Part shown: positions 1-10,004 of the stretch, piece after piece
Position numbering within the stretch: the first letter of the stretch is position 1
Layout: each line of letters starts with the position of its first letter
Source of the DNA: Sorangium aterium
Lineage (GTDB): Bacteria; Myxococcota_A; Polyangia; Polyangiales; Polyangiaceae
DNA length: 64,000 nt
Reading direction: 5' to 3'
Assembly (NCBI RefSeq): GCF_028368935.1
Contig: NZ_JAQNDK010000001.1
Span: 1 to 64,000 of the forward strand
Program-made: the position numbers and the translations under genes
Notes under the pieces: model-generated
What the model saw: the letters and a program-made list of their open reading frames with translations, nothing else
Database searches by the model: none
What the model was told of the DNA's origin: nothing

Positions 1-984
1 GCTCTTGCGGATCTGACGGGCCGGCAGGGAGATGAACTTGTCCTGAGGCACAACGGAGTTATCCCCTCGCACGAGCGCCGCGAGCACGCGCACCGACTCC
101 TTGCCATACATGTACGGATTCTGCACCACGGTGCCGACCACCTCGCCGTCCTGGATCGCGCGCAGCGTCGCGTCCTGCTCGTCGAAGCCGACGACCTTGA
201 TCGAGCTCATCTTCCCCGCCTGCTTGACCGCCTCGAGCAGGGCCGGCGTGTGGTACGCGTTCAGGCCGATCAGGCCCACGAGGTCCGGGTGCGCCGACAT
301 CATGTCTTCGGCGTTGCTCTTCGCCTTGGCGGCGTCGATCTGGTCGGTCAGGGTCGCGACGATTGTGTATTTCGCCCCCTTGATCTCCTGGTTGAGCGGG
401 TCGCTCCCGGCGCTGCTGTCCGGGCGATCGAGCAGCTCGTCGAGCACTCCTTGGCGGCGCTTGCGGGCGTTGTCCCCCTCGAGCCGCCCGACCAGGATGG
501 CCACCTTGCCGCCGGCGGGGATCGCCTCCTTCACGAGCTGCCCCGCCATCCGGCCAGCGACGTAGTTGTCGATGCCGATGTACACGATGCGCTCGCTCTT
601 CGGAGCATCCGAGTCCTGCGTGATGAGCTTTGTCTTCGCGGCCGCCTTGTTGAGCAGCGGGACCTGGTTCTCCGCGTCGATCGGGCTGATCGCGATGCCG
701 TCGACGCCGCGGATCAGGAGATCCTCGACCCGATGCATCTGGTCGTTCACGTCGCTCGGCATCACGACGCTCACCTCGGCGTCGTACTCCTTCGCGCCGT
801 CGATGACGCCCTTCTCGGCGATGGTCCAGAAGGGGGCGACGCCGTTCGTGATGTAGGCGAGCTTCGGCTTGCCCCCAGCCGCCGACGCGTCCGCCGCCGG
901 CGCGCCGCCGTTGTCGCAGCCCAGGGCCGCGAGCCCCGCCGCCACGCAGACCCCGACGATGAACCGACCGATTCTGTTCGACAT
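1..984 (-). CDS. Sugar ABC transporter substrate-binding protein (RbsB/PBP1 family), 3' end outside window
   Basis: 328 residues are visible and the frame is still open at base 1, so the C-terminus lies outside the window. The product begins with a short signal peptide and a lipoprotein-like cleavage site (AALGC), then a Gly/Ala linker and a type-I periplasmic binding fold. The opening strand is KPKLAYITNGVAPFW. DLLIRGVDGIAISPID and VVGFDEQDATLRAIQDGEVVGTVVQNPYMYGKE are typical of ribose/galactose/xylose-type binding proteins. Such proteins capture a sugar outside the inner membrane and deliver it to an ABC permease. The permease and ATPase would be expected beyond base 1. The ATG at 984 has GGGGAG five bases upstream. 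The exact sugar cannot be read from the sequence. Confidence 0.85.
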   Translation of the reverse strand, partial: MSNRIGRFIVGVCVAAGLAALGCDNGGAPAADASAAGGKPKLAYITNGVAPFWTIAEKGVIDGAKEYDAEVSVVMPSDVNDQMHRVEDLLIRGVDGIAISPIDAENQVPLLNKAAAKTKLITQDSDAPKSERIVYIGIDNYVAGRMAGQLVKEAIPAGGKVAILVGRLEGDNARKRRQGVLDELLDRPDSSAGSDPLNQEIKGAKYTIVATLTDQIDAAKAKSNAEDMMSAHPDLVGLIGLNAYHTPALLEAVKQAGKMSSIKVVGFDEQDATLRAIQDGEVVGTVVQNPYMYGKESVRVLAALVRGDNSVVPQDKFISLPARQIRKS

Positions 985-1164
985 GCGCTCTCCCCTCCAC
1001 CCGACAAGAGCCGCCTCGCGCGGCGGATCTGGGCGCCTCGTGCCGACGCACGGCGCACGACGGAGCAGGCACCCCCAGCCAACTGGCCAGCTCATGATGC
1101 GCGATCCGCTCCAGACGTGTCTACACGATTCGACGCGGACATTCCTACCGCGCCTGCCGCGCCC

Positions 1165-4100
1165 CTAGCGCCGCGTGCTCGGCGCGCTCATGCCGCCCGA
1201 TCGGCCGACGGCGTAGGCGATCCCGCTCTGCAGCGTCCCGCGGATCACGATGCGCGACATGTCGATGTCGAGCCGGAGGAGCGCCTGCGCGACCTCGCCG
1301 CGGATGCCCGTCAGCACCGCCTGGACCCCGAGCAGCCGGAGGGCGTTCGCGGCGTTGAGCAGGGCGTTCGCGACGCGTTGATCGACCCCCTTGATCCCCG
1401 TGACGTCGATGATGACGGTGCGGGTGCCGCTCCTCGTCGCGCCGTCGAGCAAGGTCGTGAGCACGTCGTGCGCGCGCTCCTCGTCCAGCGTGCCGATGAG
1501 CGGCATGACCATGACGTCGCTCGTGATCGGTACGAGCGGGGTCGACAGCTCGGAGATCTTCGCCCGCTGGAACCGGATCACCTCCTCTTGGAGCTCGGCC
1601 CGGGCCGCCTCGGCGCGCTCGCGCTCGCCGAGCTCGTGCAACAGGCGCAGGTTGGCGTCCCGTAGCTCGGCGCTCTGCGCGGAGAGGCGCACGTTGGCCA
1701 GAGAGAGCTCCTCCGTCCGCTCCTTCACCTCCTGCTCCAGCCGCTCGTTGGCCTCCCGGAGCTCGGCGCTCACGGCCGTGAGGTCCGCGTAGAGCAGCGC
1801 GTTCTCGACCGCCACGGCCGCCTGCGAGGACAGGAGCCGCAAGAGCTCGATGCGATCGGCGGTGAACGCGTGCTCCGCGAGGTGGTTCTCCAGGTACAGG
1901 ACCCCGCTCAGCCGGCCCTGGTGCAGGAGCGGCAAGCCCAAAATCGATTTCGGCCGGCGCGCGCTCACGTGCGGATCGCCGGCGAGGCGCGGGTCGTCCT
2001 CCGCGCGGCCGATCACGAGCGCCTCGCGCGAGCGCGTCACGTAATGCACGACCGAGCGGGCCAGATCGAGCCGCGCCTCCAGGGGCATCGAGAGGCCAAG
2101 GCTCACCGTATCGGGGCCGACCGCGATCATCGCCTCGACCGTCAGCACCTCGCCGCGCGCGAGGATGAGGAACCCCCGGCTCGCCCCGGCGCTCTTGATC
2201 ACGCTGCGCAAGACCTGCTCGATCACCTTGTCGAGCACGATCGCGCTCGAGATGGCCTGCGCGGTGCTGAGGACCGTGGCGAGATCGAAGCTCTCCCCCG
2301 CGACGAGGCCCTGGAGCGCGGTGCCGGTCGGCGAGAGCGGCAGAGGCTGGCCCAGGGCCGAGGGGTCGGCCGGCGCGAGCTCCTCGCGCAGCGCCTTGGC
2401 CTTCTCGGTCGCCCCCCAGCGCTCGTACAGGTAAACCGCCCTTCGCAGGAAGATGTGCGCGAACTCGACCCTGCCCTGGGCGAGCCAGAACCTGCCATAA
2501 AGCTCGTTGCCGAGCGCCTGGTTGTTGATGTAGTCGGCCTGCCGCGCGGCCTCGATGCCCCGCTCGTAGAGGTCCATCGCCTCGGCCCTCCGCCCCTCGA
2601 CGCGGGCCTGCTCGGCGAGCAGCAGCAGGTGCTTGTGGAGCACGTTGTCCGGCCCGGCGTCGGCCCAGCGCTTCATCCGCCCGAGGAGCCGCAGCAGGTG
2701 CTCCTCGTGCTCCCGCCGCTCCGCGCCCTCGGCGCTCTCCCACGCGGCGATCCGCATGAGGCCCGCGTAGAACGTCGCCTCGGGCACCTTGGCGTGCGTC
2801 GGCAAGGCGCCCTCGATCACGGCGAGCTTCGGCATCAGATCGGCAAAGCTCGCCCTGTCGCCGAACAGGTAGGCATTCCGGATCTTGGCGTAGTACAGCC
2901 ACCCCATGTGGTAGGGCGAGCCGCCATGCTTCGCCGCGTAGGCCGCCTCGTCGAACCCGTCGTCGTCGAAGCTGAGCCGGCCCCTCGTCAGCCCTTGCAG
3001 GCACCGGAGGGGCTGGATCACGCCCGCGAGGAGGATATCGATGATGTCATGGCTGCGGGCGCGCCGCAGGAACGCGAGGTGCGTCTCGGTGAGCTGCGAG
3101 AGCTCCGCGAGGTTCATCCCGTAGGTGAGCCGGTCCGAGCCGCTCTGGCTGATCATGTACCCCATGGCCGTCCAGTCGCCGGCCTGGAGCCCGAGGTCGT
3201 AGACCCGGTCGTAATAGGGATCTGCCCTCCGCAGCGGCTGCGTCCAGCTGTGCACGTCCGCGGAGAAGATGTGGTAGGTCTTCGCCCGGAGCACGAGGTT
3301 GTCGAGCTGGTCTGCGAGCTCGACGGCCATCTTGCCGAACCGATAGGCCGTCTCGTACTCGCCGAGCAGCGGGCCGACCACCATGCCGTACGCGACGTAT
3401 CCGAACGCGGACATATCGCTGTTTCCGTGCTGCAGCGAGAGCGTCACCATCTTCACGATGGCGAGGTTCGCGAGCGTCTGGTCGCTCGAGTTGTAGGCCC
3501 CGAAGAACAGGTTCACGAGCAGCTCGAGCGTCACGGGGTGCTCGGGGTTCGTCGTCCTCGGGGCGTGGGCGAGCTCCTCGATGCTGCGCGCGCCGAGGAG
3601 GACGGGCACCGCCTCGAGCTCCCGCTCGAGGAGCGCGGCGACCTCCTCCCGGGCCTCGGGGATCGGACAGCCGAGGAGCCGGAGGCCGGCCTTCTGGACG
3701 AGGGTCGCCTCGTGATTGCGCCACTGGAGCAGGTACTGGTTCGCCTGCACGAGGAGGACGGAGACCTTGTCCATGGCCGTCCGGGCGCGCGCGAGCGCCG
3801 CGGCGCAGAGCCGCTCGGCCTCCTCGAAGGCGCCGCACAGCGACTCGACCTCGGCGCGCTCCCTGTGGAGCGCGAGGGCGAGCTCGTGATGGTCGTCGAA
3901 GCCGCCGTGGGGCAGAAACCCCATGCCCGCGCGGAGATAGCCGGCCGCCGCCTCGTAGGCGGTGGCGGCCTTGGCCCTCCTGCCGGCGGCGAGGTTGAGC
4001 TCGGCGGCCGTGGCCTGCTCCGCGGGCGAGCTCACGATGGGCGCCGCGATGTTGAAGTGGTTGACGATGTCGAAGAGCGCCTCGTCCCGAGCCGCGCCCT

Positions 4101-6246
4101 CGCAGCTGGCGAGCATGAGCCGCCCGATGCGGAGGTGGACCTCCCGCTTGTGATCCTCGCTGATGAGCGAGTACGCCGCCTGCTGGACGCGATCGTGCAG
4201 GAAGCGGTAGTTGACGCGCCAGTCGACGCCGGTCTGCGCCTCGTCGTCGGTCGCGTGCGCGAGGCGGTAGTCGGTGTCCACGGGCGCGATCAGGCCCTCT
4301 TGCAGGATCTTCCACAGCGCGGCCACGGTCTCGTGCGCAGGCCGCTCGCTGATGACCGCGAGCGTGCGCAGGTCGAACTCGTGCCCGATGCAGGCCGCGA
4401 GGCGGAGGACGCGCACGAGCTCGGGCTCGAGCTCCCCGATCTTGCGCGCCATGAAGTCGACGACGTTGTCGGTGACCGTGCGCCGCCGGATGCCGTCGAG
4501 CTCCCATGTCCAGGCGCCCTTCTCGAAGCGGAGCAGGCCCTCCGTGTGGAGCGAGCCCAGGAACTGCCGCACGAAGAACGGGTTGCTCTGGGTCCGATCG
4601 AACACGACGCGGGCGAGCGGCTCGACGTCGGCGCGGGCCGCGGAGAGCGCGTCCGAGAGCAGCGCGATCACGTCGGCGAGGGCGAGCGGGCTCAGCTTGA
4701 GCTCACGGAGCGGCGCGCCTGCCTTCTCGATCTCGCCGAGCGCGACGCGGAGCGGGTGAGCCGCGTAGACCTCGTTGTCGCGGAAGGCGCCGAGGAGGAG
4801 CAGGTGGCCGCGCTCCGGATCGGCGGCCAGGACCTGGAGCAGCTTGAGCGAGGCCGGATCGGCCCATTGCAGATCGTCCAGGAAGAGGACGAGGGGGTGC
4901 TCGGCGGTCGCGAAGACGCGGACGAACGCCTTGAAGATCGCGTGAAAGCGGCCCTGCGCCTCCGCCGGCGGGAGCTGCTGGACCGGGGGCTGCTGGCCGA
5001 CGATCCACTCGAGCTCCGGGATGAGGTCGACGAGGAGCTGGCCGCTGCTCCCGAGCGCGCGGCCGAGCGCCGTGCTCCAGCGCGCGAGCTGCTCCGGTCG
5101 CTCGGTGAGGATGTGCCGGAGGAGCTCCCGGAAGGCGCGCGCGAGCGAGGCGTACGGCGCCCCGCGGTTCAGCTGCTCGAACTTGCCCGCGGTGAAGTAG
5201 CCGCCTCGCTGGGCGATGGCCCTGTGCATCTCGTTCACAAGGGCCGACTTGCCCATGCCCGCGTACCCCGACACGAGCAGGAGCTCGCCCTCCCCGCCGG
5301 CGGCGCGCTCGAAGGCGGCGAGCAGCGCGCGCTCCTCCTCGGCGCGGCCGTAGAGCTTCTGCGGGATGCGCAGCGTATCCGGGATGTCGCGCAGGCCGAG
5401 CGCGAAGGGCGCCACGGCGCCGGACGTCGAGAGCTGGCGGAGGCACGCGTCGAGGTCGGCGAAGAGCCCGAAGGCGCTCTGGTACCGGTCCTCCGCGTTC
5501 TTCTCGAGGAGCTTCATCACGATCCGGGACACCGCGTCGGGCACGCCCGGGACCTGCTCGGGCGGCGGCACCGGCGTCCGCGCGATGTGGCCATGGATGA
5601 GATCCAGCGGGTCGCTGCCGGTGAACGGCAGGACGCCGGTGAGCATCTGATAGAGGGTCACGCCGAACGAGTAGAGGTCGGTGCGGCGGTCGATCACGCG
5701 GTTCATCCGGCCGGTCTGCTCCGGCGACATGTACGCGAGCGTCCCCTCGAGCGCCTCGGGGCTTATCGCCTGCTGCGTCTCGTGCGGGAGGAGCGTCGCG
5801 ATGCCGAAGCCGACGAAGTGGACCTCGAGCGTGTCCGGGTCGACGAGGAGGTTGTGCGGCTTGATGTCCTTGTGAATCACCTTGCGGCGGTGGAACTCGT
5901 CGAGGACCCGGGCCGCAGAGCGGGCGATCGTCAACGCCGCCTTGAGCTCCAGCCGGCCGGCGCGCAGGAGGTCGTGGAGCGTCGTCCTGCTCGGCCTCTC
6001 GAGCACGAGCGCGAGGCCGTTCCTGTGCTTCTCGAGCCCGTAGGCCTTGACGACGCCCTCGACGTCGAGCGCGCAGAGCACGTTGTACTCGTGCCGGAGC
6101 GCCGCGAGCTCACGCGCGCTCGGGAACTCGCTCTTCAGGACCTTGAAGACAGCAGGCTTGCGCTCGTCACCCCAGGTCCCTTCGAACACCTCGATGCTCG
6201 AGTCGACATAGATCGGCTGGCTCACGAAACACGTCGCGGAGAGCAT
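1165..6246 (-). CDS. Multidomain signalling protein: Hanks-type kinase domain, AAA ATPase, GAF and STAS domains
   Basis: 1693 aa, cytosolic. Residues about 12-270 form a Ser/Thr kinase fold with the VAIK-type lysine K35, HKD at 125-127 and N132. The Mg-binding DFG motif reads GFG (G146) and no glycine loop is seen. A large AAA/STAND ATPase follows, with Walker A GYAGMGKS at 327-334 and Walker B LVLFLDDLQWAD, then a long helical TPR-like region. A GAF domain (about 1325-1490), a coiled coil and a C-terminal RsbR-like STAS domain complete it; both STAS threonines (DVTG, LTGIR) are present. The layout matches the large AAA-kinase hybrids of myxobacteria and cyanobacteria. Those end in histidine kinases, whereas this one ends in STAS, suggesting input to a stressosome-like partner switch. 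The ATG has GAGG four bases upstream. Loss of the DFG aspartate makes phosphotransfer doubtful. Confidence 0.9.
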   Translation of the reverse strand: MLSATCFVSQPIYVDSSIEVFEGTWGDERKPAVFKVLKSEFPSARELAALRHEYNVLCALDVEGVVKAYGLEKHRNGLALVLERPSRTTLHDLLRAGRLELKAALTIARSAARVLDEFHRRKVIHKDIKPHNLLVDPDTLEVHFVGFGIATLLPHETQQAISPEALEGTLAYMSPEQTGRMNRVIDRRTDLYSFGVTLYQMLTGVLPFTGSDPLDLIHGHIARTPVPPPEQVPGVPDAVSRIVMKLLEKNAEDRYQSAFGLFADLDACLRQLSTSGAVAPFALGLRDIPDTLRIPQKLYGRAEEERALLAAFERAAGGEGELLLVSGYAGMGKSALVNEMHRAIAQRGGYFTAGKFEQLNRGAPYASLARAFRELLRHILTERPEQLARWSTALGRALGSSGQLLVDLIPELEWIVGQQPPVQQLPPAEAQGRFHAIFKAFVRVFATAEHPLVLFLDDLQWADPASLKLLQVLAADPERGHLLLLGAFRDNEVYAAHPLRVALGEIEKAGAPLRELKLSPLALADVIALLSDALSAARADVEPLARVVFDRTQSNPFFVRQFLGSLHTEGLLRFEKGAWTWELDGIRRRTVTDNVVDFMARKIGELEPELVRVLRLAACIGHEFDLRTLAVISERPAHETVAALWKILQEGLIAPVDTDYRLAHATDDEAQTGVDWRVNYRFLHDRVQQAAYSLISEDHKREVHLRIGRLMLASCEGAARDEALFDIVNHFNIAAPIVSSPAEQATAAELNLAAGRRAKAATAYEAAAGYLRAGMGFLPHGGFDDHHELALALHRERAEVESLCGAFEEAERLCAAALARARTAMDKVSVLLVQANQYLLQWRNHEATLVQKAGLRLLGCPIPEAREEVAALLERELEAVPVLLGARSIEELAHAPRTTNPEHPVTLELLVNLFFGAYNSSDQTLANLAIVKMVTLSLQHGNSDMSAFGYVAYGMVVGPLLGEYETAYRFGKMAVELADQLDNLVLRAKTYHIFSADVHSWTQPLRRADPYYDRVYDLGLQAGDWTAMGYMISQSGSDRLTYGMNLAELSQLTETHLAFLRRARSHDIIDILLAGVIQPLRCLQGLTRGRLSFDDDGFDEAAYAAKHGGSPYHMGWLYYAKIRNAYLFGDRASFADLMPKLAVIEGALPTHAKVPEATFYAGLMRIAAWESAEGAERREHEEHLLRLLGRMKRWADAGPDNVLHKHLLLLAEQARVEGRRAEAMDLYERGIEAARQADYINNQALGNELYGRFWLAQGRVEFAHIFLRRAVYLYERWGATEKAKALREELAPADPSALGQPLPLSPTGTALQGLVAGESFDLATVLSTAQAISSAIVLDKVIEQVLRSVIKSAGASRGFLILARGEVLTVEAMIAVGPDTVSLGLSMPLEARLDLARSVVHYVTRSREALVIGRAEDDPRLAGDPHVSARRPKSILGLPLLHQGRLSGVLYLENHLAEHAFTADRIELLRLLSSQAAVAVENALLYADLTAVSAELREANERLEQEVKERTEELSLANVRLSAQSAELRDANLRLLHELGERERAEAARAELQEEVIRFQRAKISELSTPLVPITSDVMVMPLIGTLDEERAHDVLTTLLDGATRSGTRTVIIDVTGIKGVDQRVANALLNAANALRLLGVQAVLTGIRGEVAQALLRLDIDMSRIVIRGTLQSGIAYAVGRSGGMSAPSTRR

Positions 6247-6587
6247 CTCACCTCGCCGGGGCGCCGGGCGGGCCCGCCGGCGCTGCTGCTCGCATCGAGC
6301 AGGCAGGACGGACGGTGTTCTCGCACAAGCGCACCATGGGCGGATTATGTCTAGATCGCTGCCCCCGAGTCACCACCGAAATCGGAACATTGATTCGTCC
6401 ACGGTGATATTTTTCAGCATTTGTGCGCTAGATATCCAACTTGGACGGAGTCTGGCGTTCGCGCCCCGTCGCCGAGCGCGGCAGTGCGGCGCTGGCGCGG
6501 CGCTCCATGCGATGTGGGCTGGCCCTCGGAGGGCTGGACGGGGGATCGATCACGCGGCGCGCCGGGAGGGCGCGTCACGGGCGCAGG
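6247..6587 (-). promoter_or_regulatory. Intergenic region with an A+T-rich patch, probable promoter of the large kinase gene
   Basis: This 340-base gap separates the end of the VWA lipoprotein gene from the start of the kinase gene, both on the minus strand. Bases about 6375-6440 are strikingly A+T-rich for this genome, so the kinase promoter is most likely there. A TTGGAT hexamer lies about 17 bases from an A-rich block on the minus strand, but I would not call exact -35/-10 boxes. No gene is seen in the gap. Confidence 0.35.
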
Positions 6588-7814
6588 TCACTGCGGCACC
6601 TCGACGGTGGGACAGCCGAACTCGACACGGACGCTCTCCGCTCCCATGGACTTCACGTGCTCGCACGTGGCGCCCTTGATCACGAGGGTGGGCGGGGTGG
6701 TCGAATCGTCGTAATCCCAGCCGTCGTCGCCCGGCCTCGGCAGCACCTCGTCGTCGATGAAGACGTTCACCTTCGCGCGGTCCGGCGGCTCGGCCTCCAG
6801 CGAGAGCTCGCAGGTCCTCACGAGATCCCTCGTGATGCTGGTCAGCGTGTCGCCGAGGCTCGCCGCGTCCACCACCTCGAAATAACGGGGCGAGGTCTCC
6901 GACGTGGCCGTGTCGCCCTCGACGGCGAGCTGGTCCAGCACGGCGGCATAGGCCGTCGCGCCGGGGATGCCGACGACGAAGGTCTTGATACCGGCCGCGC
7001 GCAGCTCCTTCACCCGCTGCACCGTGCGCGCGTCGTCCAGGCACACGTCCGTCAGGCCCGCGACGCAGCAGTTCGGCACGCCCGAAGGGCAGTCCCCATC
7101 CATGTTCGTGGTGCAGGTCGCGGCCTCGCAGGTCATGGCCGGATCCTGGTTGCAGTTGGGACCGCCGTCGGTCGCCAGGAGGACGTACTTGTCACCTTCG
7201 AGGGCGCCGCCGGCTCCCACGGTGAGGTACCCGAGGGCGCGCGCGAGGGCGTCCGCGGTCGGCGTCGCGCCGCCGGGGTCGGTGGCATCCAGGAGGGTCT
7301 TGATGGCGGGGACCGATGTCTCGCCCGGCGCCACGGCCACGCTCAGGTCCTCGCCCGCCTCCATGCCGCAGTGGTCGTCGGAGGGAAAGAGCTGAAGCCC
7401 GACGGACATCCTGTCCTGGATCACGTCGAGCGCGGTGCCGAGGGCGCCCTTCATCATCGTCCAGCGGTCGCTCGCTTCCCACGCTTTGGTCATGCTGTCG
7501 GAGCGATCGAGCACGATCACGAGGTGAGCCTGCCGCGGCTGAGCTTCGACCTGCTGGCCGCCGCAGTCGCCGCCGCCCTCCCCCCCGCCCGAGCTGGCGC
7601 CCGGCCCGGACGCGATGAAGCCGCCTCCGAGGGAGGGCTCCCCGCCCGTTCCCCCGGAGTCCGTACCGCCGGAGCCGCCGTTTCCGGAGCCGCCGCCGCC
7701 CCCACCCGTTCCGCCATCCGATACCGAACATCCCGACGCGAGCGCCCAGCCCAGGCACCAGAGCGATGTCAGGAACAAGGAGCGGGCGTAGATCCCGCGG
7801 TTCTTGCCGGTCAT
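6588..7814 (-). CDS. VWA-domain lipoprotein
   Basis: 408 aa. A signal peptide ends in ALASGC (Cys29), followed by a long Gly/Ser linker and a von Willebrand factor A domain. The MIDAS motif is D103-R-S105-D-S107 (HLVIVLDRSDSM), and ATDGGPNC lies later in the fold. VWA domains of this kind bind ligands or partner proteins through a metal ion, and here the protein would sit at the outer membrane or in the periplasm. Several Cys pairs (DPAMTCEAATC, VPNCC) suggest disulphides. Two in-frame ATGs exist at 7820 and 7814. The second has GGAG seven bases upstream and was chosen. The gene lies 56 bases behind the Cys-rich lipoprotein gene on the same strand, so the two may be co-transcribed. The partner is unknown. 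Confidence 0.88.
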   Translation of the reverse strand: MTGKNRGIYARSLFLTSLWCLGWALASGCSVSDGGTGGGGGGSGNGGSGGTDSGGTGGEPSLGGGFIASGPGASSGGGEGGGDCGGQQVEAQPRQAHLVIVLDRSDSMTKAWEASDRWTMMKGALGTALDVIQDRMSVGLQLFPSDDHCGMEAGEDLSVAVAPGETSVPAIKTLLDATDPGGATPTADALARALGYLTVGAGGALEGDKYVLLATDGGPNCNQDPAMTCEAATCTTNMDGDCPSGVPNCCVAGLTDVCLDDARTVQRVKELRAAGIKTFVVGIPGATAYAAVLDQLAVEGDTATSETSPRYFEVVDAASLGDTLTSITRDLVRTCELSLEAEPPDRAKVNVFIDDEVLPRPGDDGWDYDDSTTPPTLVIKGATCEHVKSMGAESVRVEFGCPTVEVPQ

Positions 7815-7870
7815 ATCCATTCTCCTCGACACGAGTGAATCGACGCGAGTCAACGCGCCCGCACGCGGCG

Positions 7871-9592
7871 TCAGCCCGGAGGAATGCGGCAGATGCCGTT
7901 GTAACACTGCACGGTTCCGGCGTTGCAGCAGTCGGACGTCGCGCCGCAGAGCTGCCCGTACTCGGCGCATCGCGGCGGGGTGCCGCCCGCCCCGTCCGAG
8001 CCACCGCCGCCGCCGGCGCCGCCGGCTCCGCCGGTCGCGCTCGAGCTCCCGGTCGCGCCCGAGCTCCCGGTCGCGCCTGACGGGGAGTCCGTCGTGCACG
8101 TGCCTGAAAGGGAGCCCGGCTCGTACTCGCACGTCGTTCCGACGCAGCAGTCGCCGTTGTTCGTGCAGGGTCCGCCCGCCGTGACACAGCGGGGCGTCGT
8201 CCCTCCGGGCGTGTCGTAACACTGGAGCTTGCCAGTTTCGCTATTCCGTACGCAGGGAGCGCCGTCGCAGCAGTCGTCGGCGGAGGCGCAGTCCTCGCCT
8301 GCCTGGCGGCAGGCCGTGAGCGCGTTGCACCGAGGCACGCCGAGGGCGTCGAGGCGGCAGTTGCTGGCGTGGCCCAGGTAGCTGCAGCAGTTGTTGGGAG
8401 CGCTGGTGGACGTATCCGAGCAATAGCTGTCCTTGAAGTGACAGACGCCGCCCTGGGGCGTGCAGCCGTTCGGGTTGCGGCAGCGGCCGATCTCCCCGTC
8501 CGGATCCCCCGACTTGTCGCAGACGACGTTGCCCGCGCCCGGCAGATCGGCCGTGGGATCGCCGCCGCAGCAGTCCTCGTTGCGCCGGCACAGGGCGCCG
8601 TTCACGCGGCAGCCGCTCGGCGGCTGGCAGACAGCGATCCCGGTGGGGCCGTACGGCGCGCAGACGCGGCTGCAGCAGAAGCCGCAGCTGTCGCAGACCG
8701 CGCCGTCGATGCCGCCGCTGCTGCAGCGGCTCGCCGTCGACGGCTCCGCGCCGCAGTAGCCCGCGGGGTCGGCTGTGTTCCGCTTCACGCACACGCCGGT
8801 ACAGCAGTCGCTGTCGCCCTTGCAGACGTCGTTGCGCTGCACGCAGAACGAGGAGTAGAGGACACAGCGGTTGTCTCGCCCGCAGAGCTTGGAGCAACAC
8901 TGGCTGTCCTCGGTGCACGGGTTGCCGCCCGTCTGGCATGCGGTGGCGCCGTTGACGTCGCTGCACGTCCCGCCGACGCACATGCCGCTGCAGCACGCGG
9001 CGCCGCCTGCCGTGCAGTCGGATCCATCGGGGAGGCAGGCGGTCGCGCTGCACCTGCCCGAAGCGCAGTTGAGGGTACAGCACTCCGAGGATTCCTCGCA
9101 AGCGGCGCCGGTCCCGAGGCAGACGCTGAGCGGCGAGGCGCAGGTGCTCGTCGCGCTGTCGCAGATGCCGGAACAGCAATCTCCGGAGCGCGCGCACGTG
9201 GCCCCGTAGGGCTCGCAGGTCGGCACCTCGACCCCCGTGTCAGGACCGCCCGCGCCGCCGACGCCATCCGTGCCGCCGGCGCCCGCGCCGCTGGCGAGCG
9301 CACCGCCCGCGCCGCCCGCACCGCCGGCGCCCGCACCACCGACGCCTGTGCCCGCGCCGCCTTCTCCAGAGCCGCCCGCCGCGCCGGCGCCGCCCGTTCC
9401 GCTCATCCCGCCGCCGCCAGCGTTGGCCCCTCCGGAGCCGCTGGCGGAGGAGCTGCCCTCGGCTGCGCTGCTGGAGGGCCCTGACGTGTTGGCGACGCCA
9501 CCTTCGCCTCCCGAGCCCGTGCCTTCGGACGAGCCGCAGGCGCCGGAGAGCCATACGATGCCGACAGCCGCGAAGATTCGAGATACGCGCAT
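7871..9592 (-). CDS. Lipoprotein with about 11 tandem cystine-rich (knottin/Dickkopf-like) modules
   Basis: 573 aa. The signal peptide ends in LSGAC. A Gly/Ala/Ser linker of about 110 residues follows, and the rest is an array of Cys-rich modules. The common pattern is C-x3-G-x2-C-x5-CC-x3-C-x4-7-C, for example CLGTGAACEESSECC and CVTAGGPCTNNGDCC. I count about 11 modules; two are enlarged by insertions. The six-Cys spacing with a central CC pair resembles inhibitor-cystine-knot and Dickkopf folds, so a disulphide-stapled rod on the cell surface is likely. ATG at 9592 has AGGA six bases upstream and begins directly at the signal peptide. The VWA lipoprotein gene follows. Similar Cys-rich arrays are common in myxobacteria, but their function is not established and I do not assign one. 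Confidence 0.85.
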   Translation of the reverse strand: MRVSRIFAAVGIVWLSGACGSSEGTGSGGEGGVANTSGPSSSAAEGSSSASGSGGANAGGGGMSGTGGAGAAGGSGEGGAGTGVGGAGAGGAGGAGGALASGAGAGGTDGVGGAGGPDTGVEVPTCEPYGATCARSGDCCSGICDSATSTCASPLSVCLGTGAACEESSECCTLNCASGRCSATACLPDGSDCTAGGAACCSGMCVGGTCSDVNGATACQTGGNPCTEDSQCCSKLCGRDNRCVLYSSFCVQRNDVCKGDSDCCTGVCVKRNTADPAGYCGAEPSTASRCSSGGIDGAVCDSCGFCCSRVCAPYGPTGIAVCQPPSGCRVNGALCRRNEDCCGGDPTADLPGAGNVVCDKSGDPDGEIGRCRNPNGCTPQGGVCHFKDSYCSDTSTSAPNNCCSYLGHASNCRLDALGVPRCNALTACRQAGEDCASADDCCDGAPCVRNSETGKLQCYDTPGGTTPRCVTAGGPCTNNGDCCVGTTCEYEPGSLSGTCTTDSPSGATGSSGATGSSSATGGAGGAGGGGGSDGAGGTPPRCAEYGQLCGATSDCCNAGTVQCYNGICRIPPG

Positions 9593-10004
9593 ACACTTTC
9601 CTCGCTTGATCGCTTGCCGCAACCGACGCAGTCGGAGGAGAGATACATTCGCGCAACTCCAGCTTGTCCGTATGGCTTTTGTTTCAGGGCGTGCGCCTCT
9701 CCCTCCATTTTTGTCGCAGGTGGTGAGCCTCGTGAGCCCTGCGCGCACAGGCGCGCGCAGGCGCGCGCAGGGCAGAGCTCGCGCTCGCCTGGCCGTGATG
9801 AGCTCTGCCCCGAACGGTCAGCTAGACAGCAATCCGCGCTTTGGTGAGGTTCGTCGCAAAGAGCCCTTCCACGAGGGAGCGACGCTGTGCAGGCCTCGAG
9901 AAGAAACCGTGCTCCGCGTCGTTCGGCTCGCTGCGGCGTACTTTCGTACGCCTCACTCGCCTGCCCAGCGGCTGAGCCCGTATCCCACGAATCTGCACCC
10001 CGCT
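9593..10004. other. Intergenic region between the transporter operon and the Cys-rich lipoprotein gene
   Basis: About 410 bases without a convincing gene. It holds a perfect 11-bp inverted repeat at 9770-9810, next to a GCGCGC-rich run with three near-copies of GGCGCGCGCA at about 9748-9770. The leader and ribosome-binding site of the lipoprotein gene lie at its left end. Confidence 0.5.
9770..9810 (-). terminator. 11-bp inverted repeat, possible terminator of the transporter operon
   Basis: GGGCAGAGCTC at 9770-9780 pairs perfectly with GAGCTCTGCCC at 9800-9810 across a 19-base loop. It lies about 195 bases beyond the last transporter gene in the direction of transcription and about 180 bases before the lipoprotein start. 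No T-run follows on either strand, so it could equally be an operator or a factor-dependent termination site. Confidence 0.4.

What the first reader, a model, noticed from the sequence alone, without database searches (positions are those of the whole stretch)
7871..9592. Lipoprotein built of about eleven cystine-knot-like modules
The repeating C-x3-G-x2-C-x5-CC-x3-C-x4-7-C spacing recalls knottins and Dickkopf modules but is arrayed 11 times on a lipid-anchored Gly-rich stalk. Such an array could be a rigid surface fibre, a protease-resistant shield or a receptor for other cells. I know of no assigned function.
Basis: partly seen in the sequence, partly recalled or inferred. Interest (0 to 1): 0.6.

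Follow-up and report, generated by a model that had tools for sequence, protein, structure and literature searches.

The report
Eleven-knot cysteine-rich bacterial surface lipoprotein
A soil-bacterium (myxobacterial) gene encodes a probable lipid-anchored surface protein made of eleven tiny disulphide-knotted modules, the mini-fold known from spider and cone-snail toxins, and in its closest relatives it is usually paired with a gene for an integrin-like adhesion protein, which suggests a tough attachment device that nobody has named or studied.

Summary
The gene lies on the minus strand (9592..7871): lipoprotein signal and Cys19, a 105-residue Gly/Ala/Ser-rich tether, ten cysteine modules, a 42-residue Gly/Ser linker and an eleventh module. 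The 68 mature cysteines fit 11 modules (nine with 6, two with 7). Spacing C-x6-C-x5-CC-x3/4-C-xn-C is that of inhibitor-cystine-knot (ICK) miniproteins. The module profile matches only ICK knottins in the PDB, and AlphaFold2 gives pLDDT 85, pTM 0.82.

It is an unnamed family found almost wholly in Myxococcota: 33 of 108 Polyangiaceae genomes, but none of the 5 other genomes of the window's genus. The 11 modules are position-specific and old: each resembles its positional counterpart in relatives more than any sister module.

In ten loci, window included, a VWA lipoprotein gene lies just 3' on the same strand. It resembles the Myxococcus gliding adhesin CglB and has an intact MIDAS signature; its model resembles bacterial pilus adhesins and integrin I domains. 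A further locus has a different VWA protein there.

Best reading: a disulphide-hardened, lipid-tethered surface rod that works with a VWA adhesin in attachment. The fold class is well supported; function is inferred from gene pairing, and some relatives lack the partner.

The parts
7871..9592 (-). ICK-array lipoprotein gene, 573 aa
   Evidence: ORF and translation; relatives at 40-53% identity over the array
9536..9592 (-). signal peptide and lipobox, aa 1-19 (LSGA-C19)
   Evidence: PROSITE-style lipobox pattern match; C19 nearly invariant in 11 relatives
9218..9535 (-). Gly/Ala/Ser-rich tether, aa 20-125
   Evidence: 46 Gly, 19 Ala, 15 Ser in 105 residues
9140..9217 (-). ICK module 1 (aa 126-151)
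9050..9121 (-). ICK module 2 (aa 158-181)
8963..9037 (-). ICK module 3 (aa 186-210)
8864..8938 (-). ICK module 4 (aa 219-243)
8753..8845 (-). ICK module 5 (aa 250-280)
8627..8725 (-). module 6, 7 Cys (aa 290-322), the most conserved module (CCSRxCAPYGPTG)
8480..8611 (-). module 7, long loop 4 (aa 328-371)
8327..8464 (-). module 8, 7 Cys (aa 377-422)
8219..8311 (-). ICK module 9 (aa 428-458)
8096..8188 (-). ICK module 10 (aa 469-499)
7970..8095 (-). Gly/Ser linker, aa 500-541; its core is the only low-confidence stretch of the model
7889..7969 (-). terminal ICK module 11 (aa 542-568); its Cys columns are filled in only 65-75% of rows, partly because several rows were cut short
6588..7820 (-). 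VWA-domain (MIDAS) lipoprotein, CglB-like, 50 nt downstream on the same strand
   Evidence: Pfam VWA 1.2e-7; NCBIfam CglB 2.5e-27 but under its cut-off; model resembles VWA adhesins

Best explanation
A lipid-anchored surface protein whose Gly-rich tether carries a compact array of ten cystine-knot modules plus a detached terminal knot. The array serves as a disulphide-hardened, protease-resistant rod or platform that works with the MIDAS-bearing VWA lipoprotein encoded just downstream, in adhesion to a substrate, prey or kin cell. Shown or strongly supported by computation: the gene, the lipoprotein signal, eleven modules of ICK type, an old position-specific architecture, and recurrent adjacency to VWA lipoproteins. 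Inferred: surface exposure, rod shape, physical interaction with the VWA protein, and adhesion as the role.
For: ICK modules: spacing; the PDB profile search returns 29 hits, all ICK-type miniproteins, best 1.5e-4; only knottin-type Pfam families are hit by the 40 relatives; AF2 pLDDT 84.6, pTM 0.82; single modules superpose at 0.7-0.8 A on solved knottins. Fixed architecture: for all 11 modules the positional ortholog scores above any sister module, and most cysteines are invariant. Pairing: a VWA lipoprotein gene lies directly 3', same strand, in ten loci, plus L076 with a different VWA protein, against only about 8 homologues in the whole 13.5-Mb genome. The DxSxS signature is intact in all ten partners. 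The partner model matches bacterial pilus adhesins, the LapA VWA domain and integrin I domains. Precedents: CglB is a VWA surface lipoprotein adhesin of gliding motility (PMC12288465), and the Cys-rich repeats of TraA were proposed as a rigid stalk (PMC3325183).
Against: Most ICK loci outside one branch lack the VWA neighbour, and three related loci have a different lipoprotein there. VWA relatives nested among the partners have no ICK array within about 1.5 kb, so the pair is separable. Foldseek gave no PDB match at E <= 0.001 and VIA-align none at Z >= 2. No coordinates were returned, so the rod shape and disulphide connectivity were not measured. Nothing here shows surface exposure or binding.
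Confidence: 0.4

Rival explanations
1. Multi-headed protease inhibitor: each knot, or a few of them, blocks a protease and shields the predator's envelope from its own or prey enzymes.
For: Some solved knottins that match the module profile are trypsin inhibitors, and predatory myxobacteria secrete many proteases (own knowledge).
Against: Loop 1 shows no shared basic or hydrophobic P1-like residue; its strongest position is Gly (74 of 85). The most conserved module is the non-canonical module 6. The VWA pairing is not explained.
Confidence: 0.15
2. Passive stalk or spacer: a rigid stem that only presents the terminal module or another protein away from the membrane, without its own ligand.
For: Tether, array and detached last knot; stalk role proposed for TraA Cys-rich repeats.
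Against: Conservation is highest inside the array (modules 6 and 10), not at the tip; module 11 is among the least conserved and its columns are the least filled. Pure spacers usually vary in repeat number, but the module plan here is nearly constant.
Confidence: 0.2
3. Receptor or recognition protein for other cells or a soluble ligand, for instance in kin or prey sensing.
For: Patchy presence in the family (33 of 108 genomes), two or more copies in some genomes, and conserved non-Cys residues in central modules.
Against: No polymorphic segment like that of TraA stands out; conservation is even and old.
Confidence: 0.15
4. Cysteine-rich metal-binding or redox-buffering surface protein.
For: 12% cysteine.
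Against: Spacing and fold prediction fit disulphide knots, and the envelope exterior is oxidising (own knowledge).
Confidence: 0.05

Closest known systems
Inhibitor cystine knot (knottin) miniproteins of spiders, cone snails and plants
   Same: Cys spacing, module length, profile matches, backbone match of 0.7-0.8 A over 24-25 residues
   Different: Those are mostly single, free, secreted peptides; this is an array of 11 non-interchangeable knots in one lipid-anchored, acidic (net -18 over the array) bacterial protein. Common ancestry was not tested and convergence is possible.
Colipase / Dickkopf Cys-rich domains
   Same: Colipase is the top-ranked Foldseek match (E 0.43, weak); a more distant ICK array, L042, passes Pfam Dickkopf_N
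   Different: This protein has no Dickkopf_N match
Double-knot toxin (two tandem ICK domains)
   Same: Tandem knots
   Different: Two knots, not eleven; the relative arrangement does not superpose (rmsd 13 A)
TraA Cys-rich repeats (TIGR04201) of myxobacterial outer-membrane exchange
   Same: Disulphide-rich tandem array on a myxobacterial surface protein, proposed rigid stalk (PMC3325183)
   Different: No NCBIfam hit for this protein or 39 relatives; no PA14 domain; anchored by a lipobox rather than MYXO-CTERM
CglB gliding adhesin (partner gene only)
   Same: VWA lipoprotein with DxSxS signature, NCBIfam NF033757 at 2.5e-27
   Different: 95.9 bits against a cut-off of 200; no gene in 11 sampled genomes passes

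Membership tests
ICK knottin fold | Six-Cys pattern with adjacent CIII-CIV and short loops | tested here: met
ICK knottin fold | Profile similarity to solved knottins | tested here: met
   29 of 29 PDB hits at E <= 1 are ICK-type miniproteins, best 1.5e-4
ICK knottin fold | Predicted fold matches solved knottins | tested here: inconclusive
   Good superposition of single modules, but no match at E <= 0.001 or Z >= 2
ICK knottin fold | Disulphides C1-C4, C2-C5, C3-C6 | not testable with these tools
   No coordinates returned; needs mass spectrometry or a structure
Dickkopf_N (PF04706) | Pfam gathering score | tested here: not met
   No hit for this protein
TraA Cys-rich repeat (TIGR04201) | NCBIfam match | tested here: not met
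Bacterial lipoprotein | Signal peptide with lipobox Cys | tested here: met
   Pattern match; C19 nearly invariant
Bacterial lipoprotein | Outer-membrane surface exposure | not testable with these tools
   needs surface labelling
CglB equivalog (partner gene) | NF033757 above 200 bits | tested here: not met
   95.9 bits; none over the cut-off in 11 genomes
VWA domain with MIDAS (partner gene) | VWA fold and DxSxS...T...D | tested here: met
   Pfam above cut-off; invariant D17, S19, S21, T98, D130 in A4; fold

The most novel reading that the evidence does not exclude
A new type of bacterial attachment device: an eleven-knot cystine-knot array that is the structural partner of a CglB-like VWA adhesin, making knottin arrays a myxobacterial counterpart of the disulphide-rich extracellular proteins of animals.
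Probability: 0.3. Interest if true: 0.75.

Novelty: new variant of a known kind. Interest (0 to 1): 0.55.

Why it matters
The ICK fold is best known from small eukaryotic peptides. A bacterial protein with eleven of them, fixed in order across a lineage and often next to an integrin-like VWA adhesin gene, would add a surface architecture to predatory, gliding bacteria. It would also give a direct test of whether Polyangiaceae use a CglB-type adhesion machine with extra parts, and a natural source of long, disulphide-hardened knottin scaffolds. Neither Pfam nor NCBIfam names it, and I found no paper on it in the open-access library.

Tried and rejected
Duplication in the genome: rejected, the second copy is a contig-end overlap. 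Chance Cys pattern: rejected. Recent tandem expansion: rejected, modules match positional orthologs better than sisters. Named family: none in Pfam or NCBIfam for this protein. Partner as true CglB: not met. Monophyly of the ICK-linked VWA genes: seen in a first tree but lost when closer relatives were added (3 changes), so I do not claim it. A VWA search over 108 Polyangiaceae found ICK arrays beside the six best hits and none within about 1.5 kb of the next 24, but those six are in the query alignment, so this is not independent. VIA-align gave nothing. The VWA partner profile has no PDB sequence hit. The promoter and terminator scan was uninformative: its one terminator-like site near the junction lies inside the VWA gene, and sites were no more frequent than in shuffles. 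Papers on knottins or Dickkopf domains in myxobacteria: none relevant.

Full report
What is there. The finding's coordinates hold a single gene on the minus strand, 9592 down to 7871, 573 codons. It starts with a Shine-Dalgarno and an ATG. Residues 1-19 form a signal peptide ending in a lipobox (LSGA-C19) whose cysteine is nearly invariant in relatives. A 105-residue Gly/Ala/Ser-rich tether follows, then ten cysteine modules in close succession (linkers of 4-10 residues), a 42-residue Gly/Ser linker and an eleventh module. The 68 mature cysteines are accounted for by 11 modules, nine with six cysteines and two (modules 6 and 8) with seven. An identical second copy reported by the genome search is an assembly overlap: the end of contig C3 and the start of C1 share 9,599 bases without mismatch.

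Is it more than chance? Seven modules fit one strict pattern; shuffles of the same composition give 0.0036 on average and never more than one, and no other frame in the window has any. In 40 relatives the loop lengths are almost fixed.

What the modules are. The spacing is that of the inhibitor cystine knot. A profile of 60 modules finds 29 sequences in the PDB at E <= 1, all of them ICK-type miniproteins from animals or plants, best E 1.5e-4. The protein itself has no Pfam or NCBIfam hit, but 18 of 40 relatives match Conotoxin_I2 at E <= 0.01, others match further knottin-type families, and nothing else is matched. AlphaFold2 on 40 aligned sequences gives mean pLDDT 84.6 and pTM 0.82, low only in the last linker. 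Foldseek ranks colipase, single knottins and the double-knot toxin, with 0.7-0.8 A superposition of single modules, but no match reaches E <= 0.001, and VIA-align finds none at Z >= 2. For such short modules this is supportive rather than decisive. Disulphide connectivity was not tested.

The family. Fifty-five loci in GTDB-species genomes carry relatives, nearly all labelled Myxococcota or Deltaproteobacteria. Thirty-three of 108 Polyangiaceae genomes have it, but none of the five other genomes of the window's genus, so it is an accessory trait. In a sample across the phylum, strong matches lie in Polyangiaceae and one other family of the order, with weaker matches elsewhere. The architecture is old and position-specific: for all eleven modules the counterpart in other species scores higher than the best sister module. 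Modules 6 and 10 are the most conserved outside cysteines; modules 1, 2 and 11 the least.

The neighbour. Fifty nucleotides downstream, on the same strand, lies a VWA lipoprotein (6588-7820; Pfam VWA 1.2e-7) related to the gliding adhesin CglB but below that family's cut-off (2.5e-27, 95.9 of 200 bits). The same arrangement occurs in ten loci including the window; an eleventh, L076, has a different VWA protein in the same place. The own genome has only about eight detectable homologues of this VWA protein in 13.5 Mb, so the recurrence is not chance, although part of it is shared descent. The partner also sits beside L038, an array with 15 recognised knots. In the array tree, eight of the nine VWA-linked arrays fall in one half of 14 rows, and two of its six unlinked members have too little sequence to judge. 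Partners carry an intact DxSxS signature. The predicted partner structure matches pilus adhesins, the LapA VWA domain and integrin I domains. The pair is separable: many arrays lack it, three have another lipoprotein there, and VWA relatives nested among the partners are not near an array.

How it most likely works. I propose that the array is a disulphide-hardened rod or platform on a flexible lipid tether, acting with the VWA adhesin at the cell surface. CglB is a documented VWA surface lipoprotein adhesin of gliding (PMC12288465; PMC4488436), and Cys-rich repeats of TraA were proposed as a rigid stalk (PMC3325183). Steps shown by computation: gene, lipobox, ICK-type modules, fixed architecture, recurrent pairing. 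Steps inferred: exposure, shape, interaction and role. Protease inhibition, passive spacing and recognition remain open.

Novelty. The fold is known; an eleven-knot, lipid-anchored bacterial array is not named in Pfam or NCBIfam, and no paper in the open-access library described it. I class it as a new variant of a known kind.

Noticed in passing
G000:C4:1361611-1362498 (L146, L156): A second ICK-array lipoprotein of another subfamily (426 aa, at least nine module matches) in the same genome, next to a divergently oriented gene with a VWA-like DxSxS motif.
   Followed up: partly
window 1-9599: The first 9,599 bases of the window's contig repeat the end of contig C3 exactly, so the two contigs probably join and C3 continues to the left of the window.
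   Followed up: yes
L041:627-3275 (Polyangiaceae genome G021): An 883-aa protein with 19 Dicty_CTDC Cys-rich repeats and a C-terminal sorting-tag-like end, a repeat type otherwise named for slime moulds.
   Followed up: no
L082, L093, L097, L035, L066, L068, L096: Several ICK-array loci have a sigma-70-type regulator gene nearby (ECF type and FecR partner confirmed by Pfam in L035; sigma in L058 and L096); in L082 a Stig1-domain Cys-rich protein also lies beside the array.
   Followed up: partly
L092 (PLXR01000034.1): A full-size ICK array on a contig binned as Opitutaceae (Verrucomicrobiota): horizontal transfer or mis-binning.
   Followed up: no
L042:6000-7193: Array of nine knots passing Pfam Dickkopf_N, ending in a segment that by eye resembles a somatomedin-B domain.
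   Followed up: no
window 1165-6246 (-): A 1,693-aa kinase-AAA-GAF-STAS signalling protein directly downstream of the pair.
   Followed up: no
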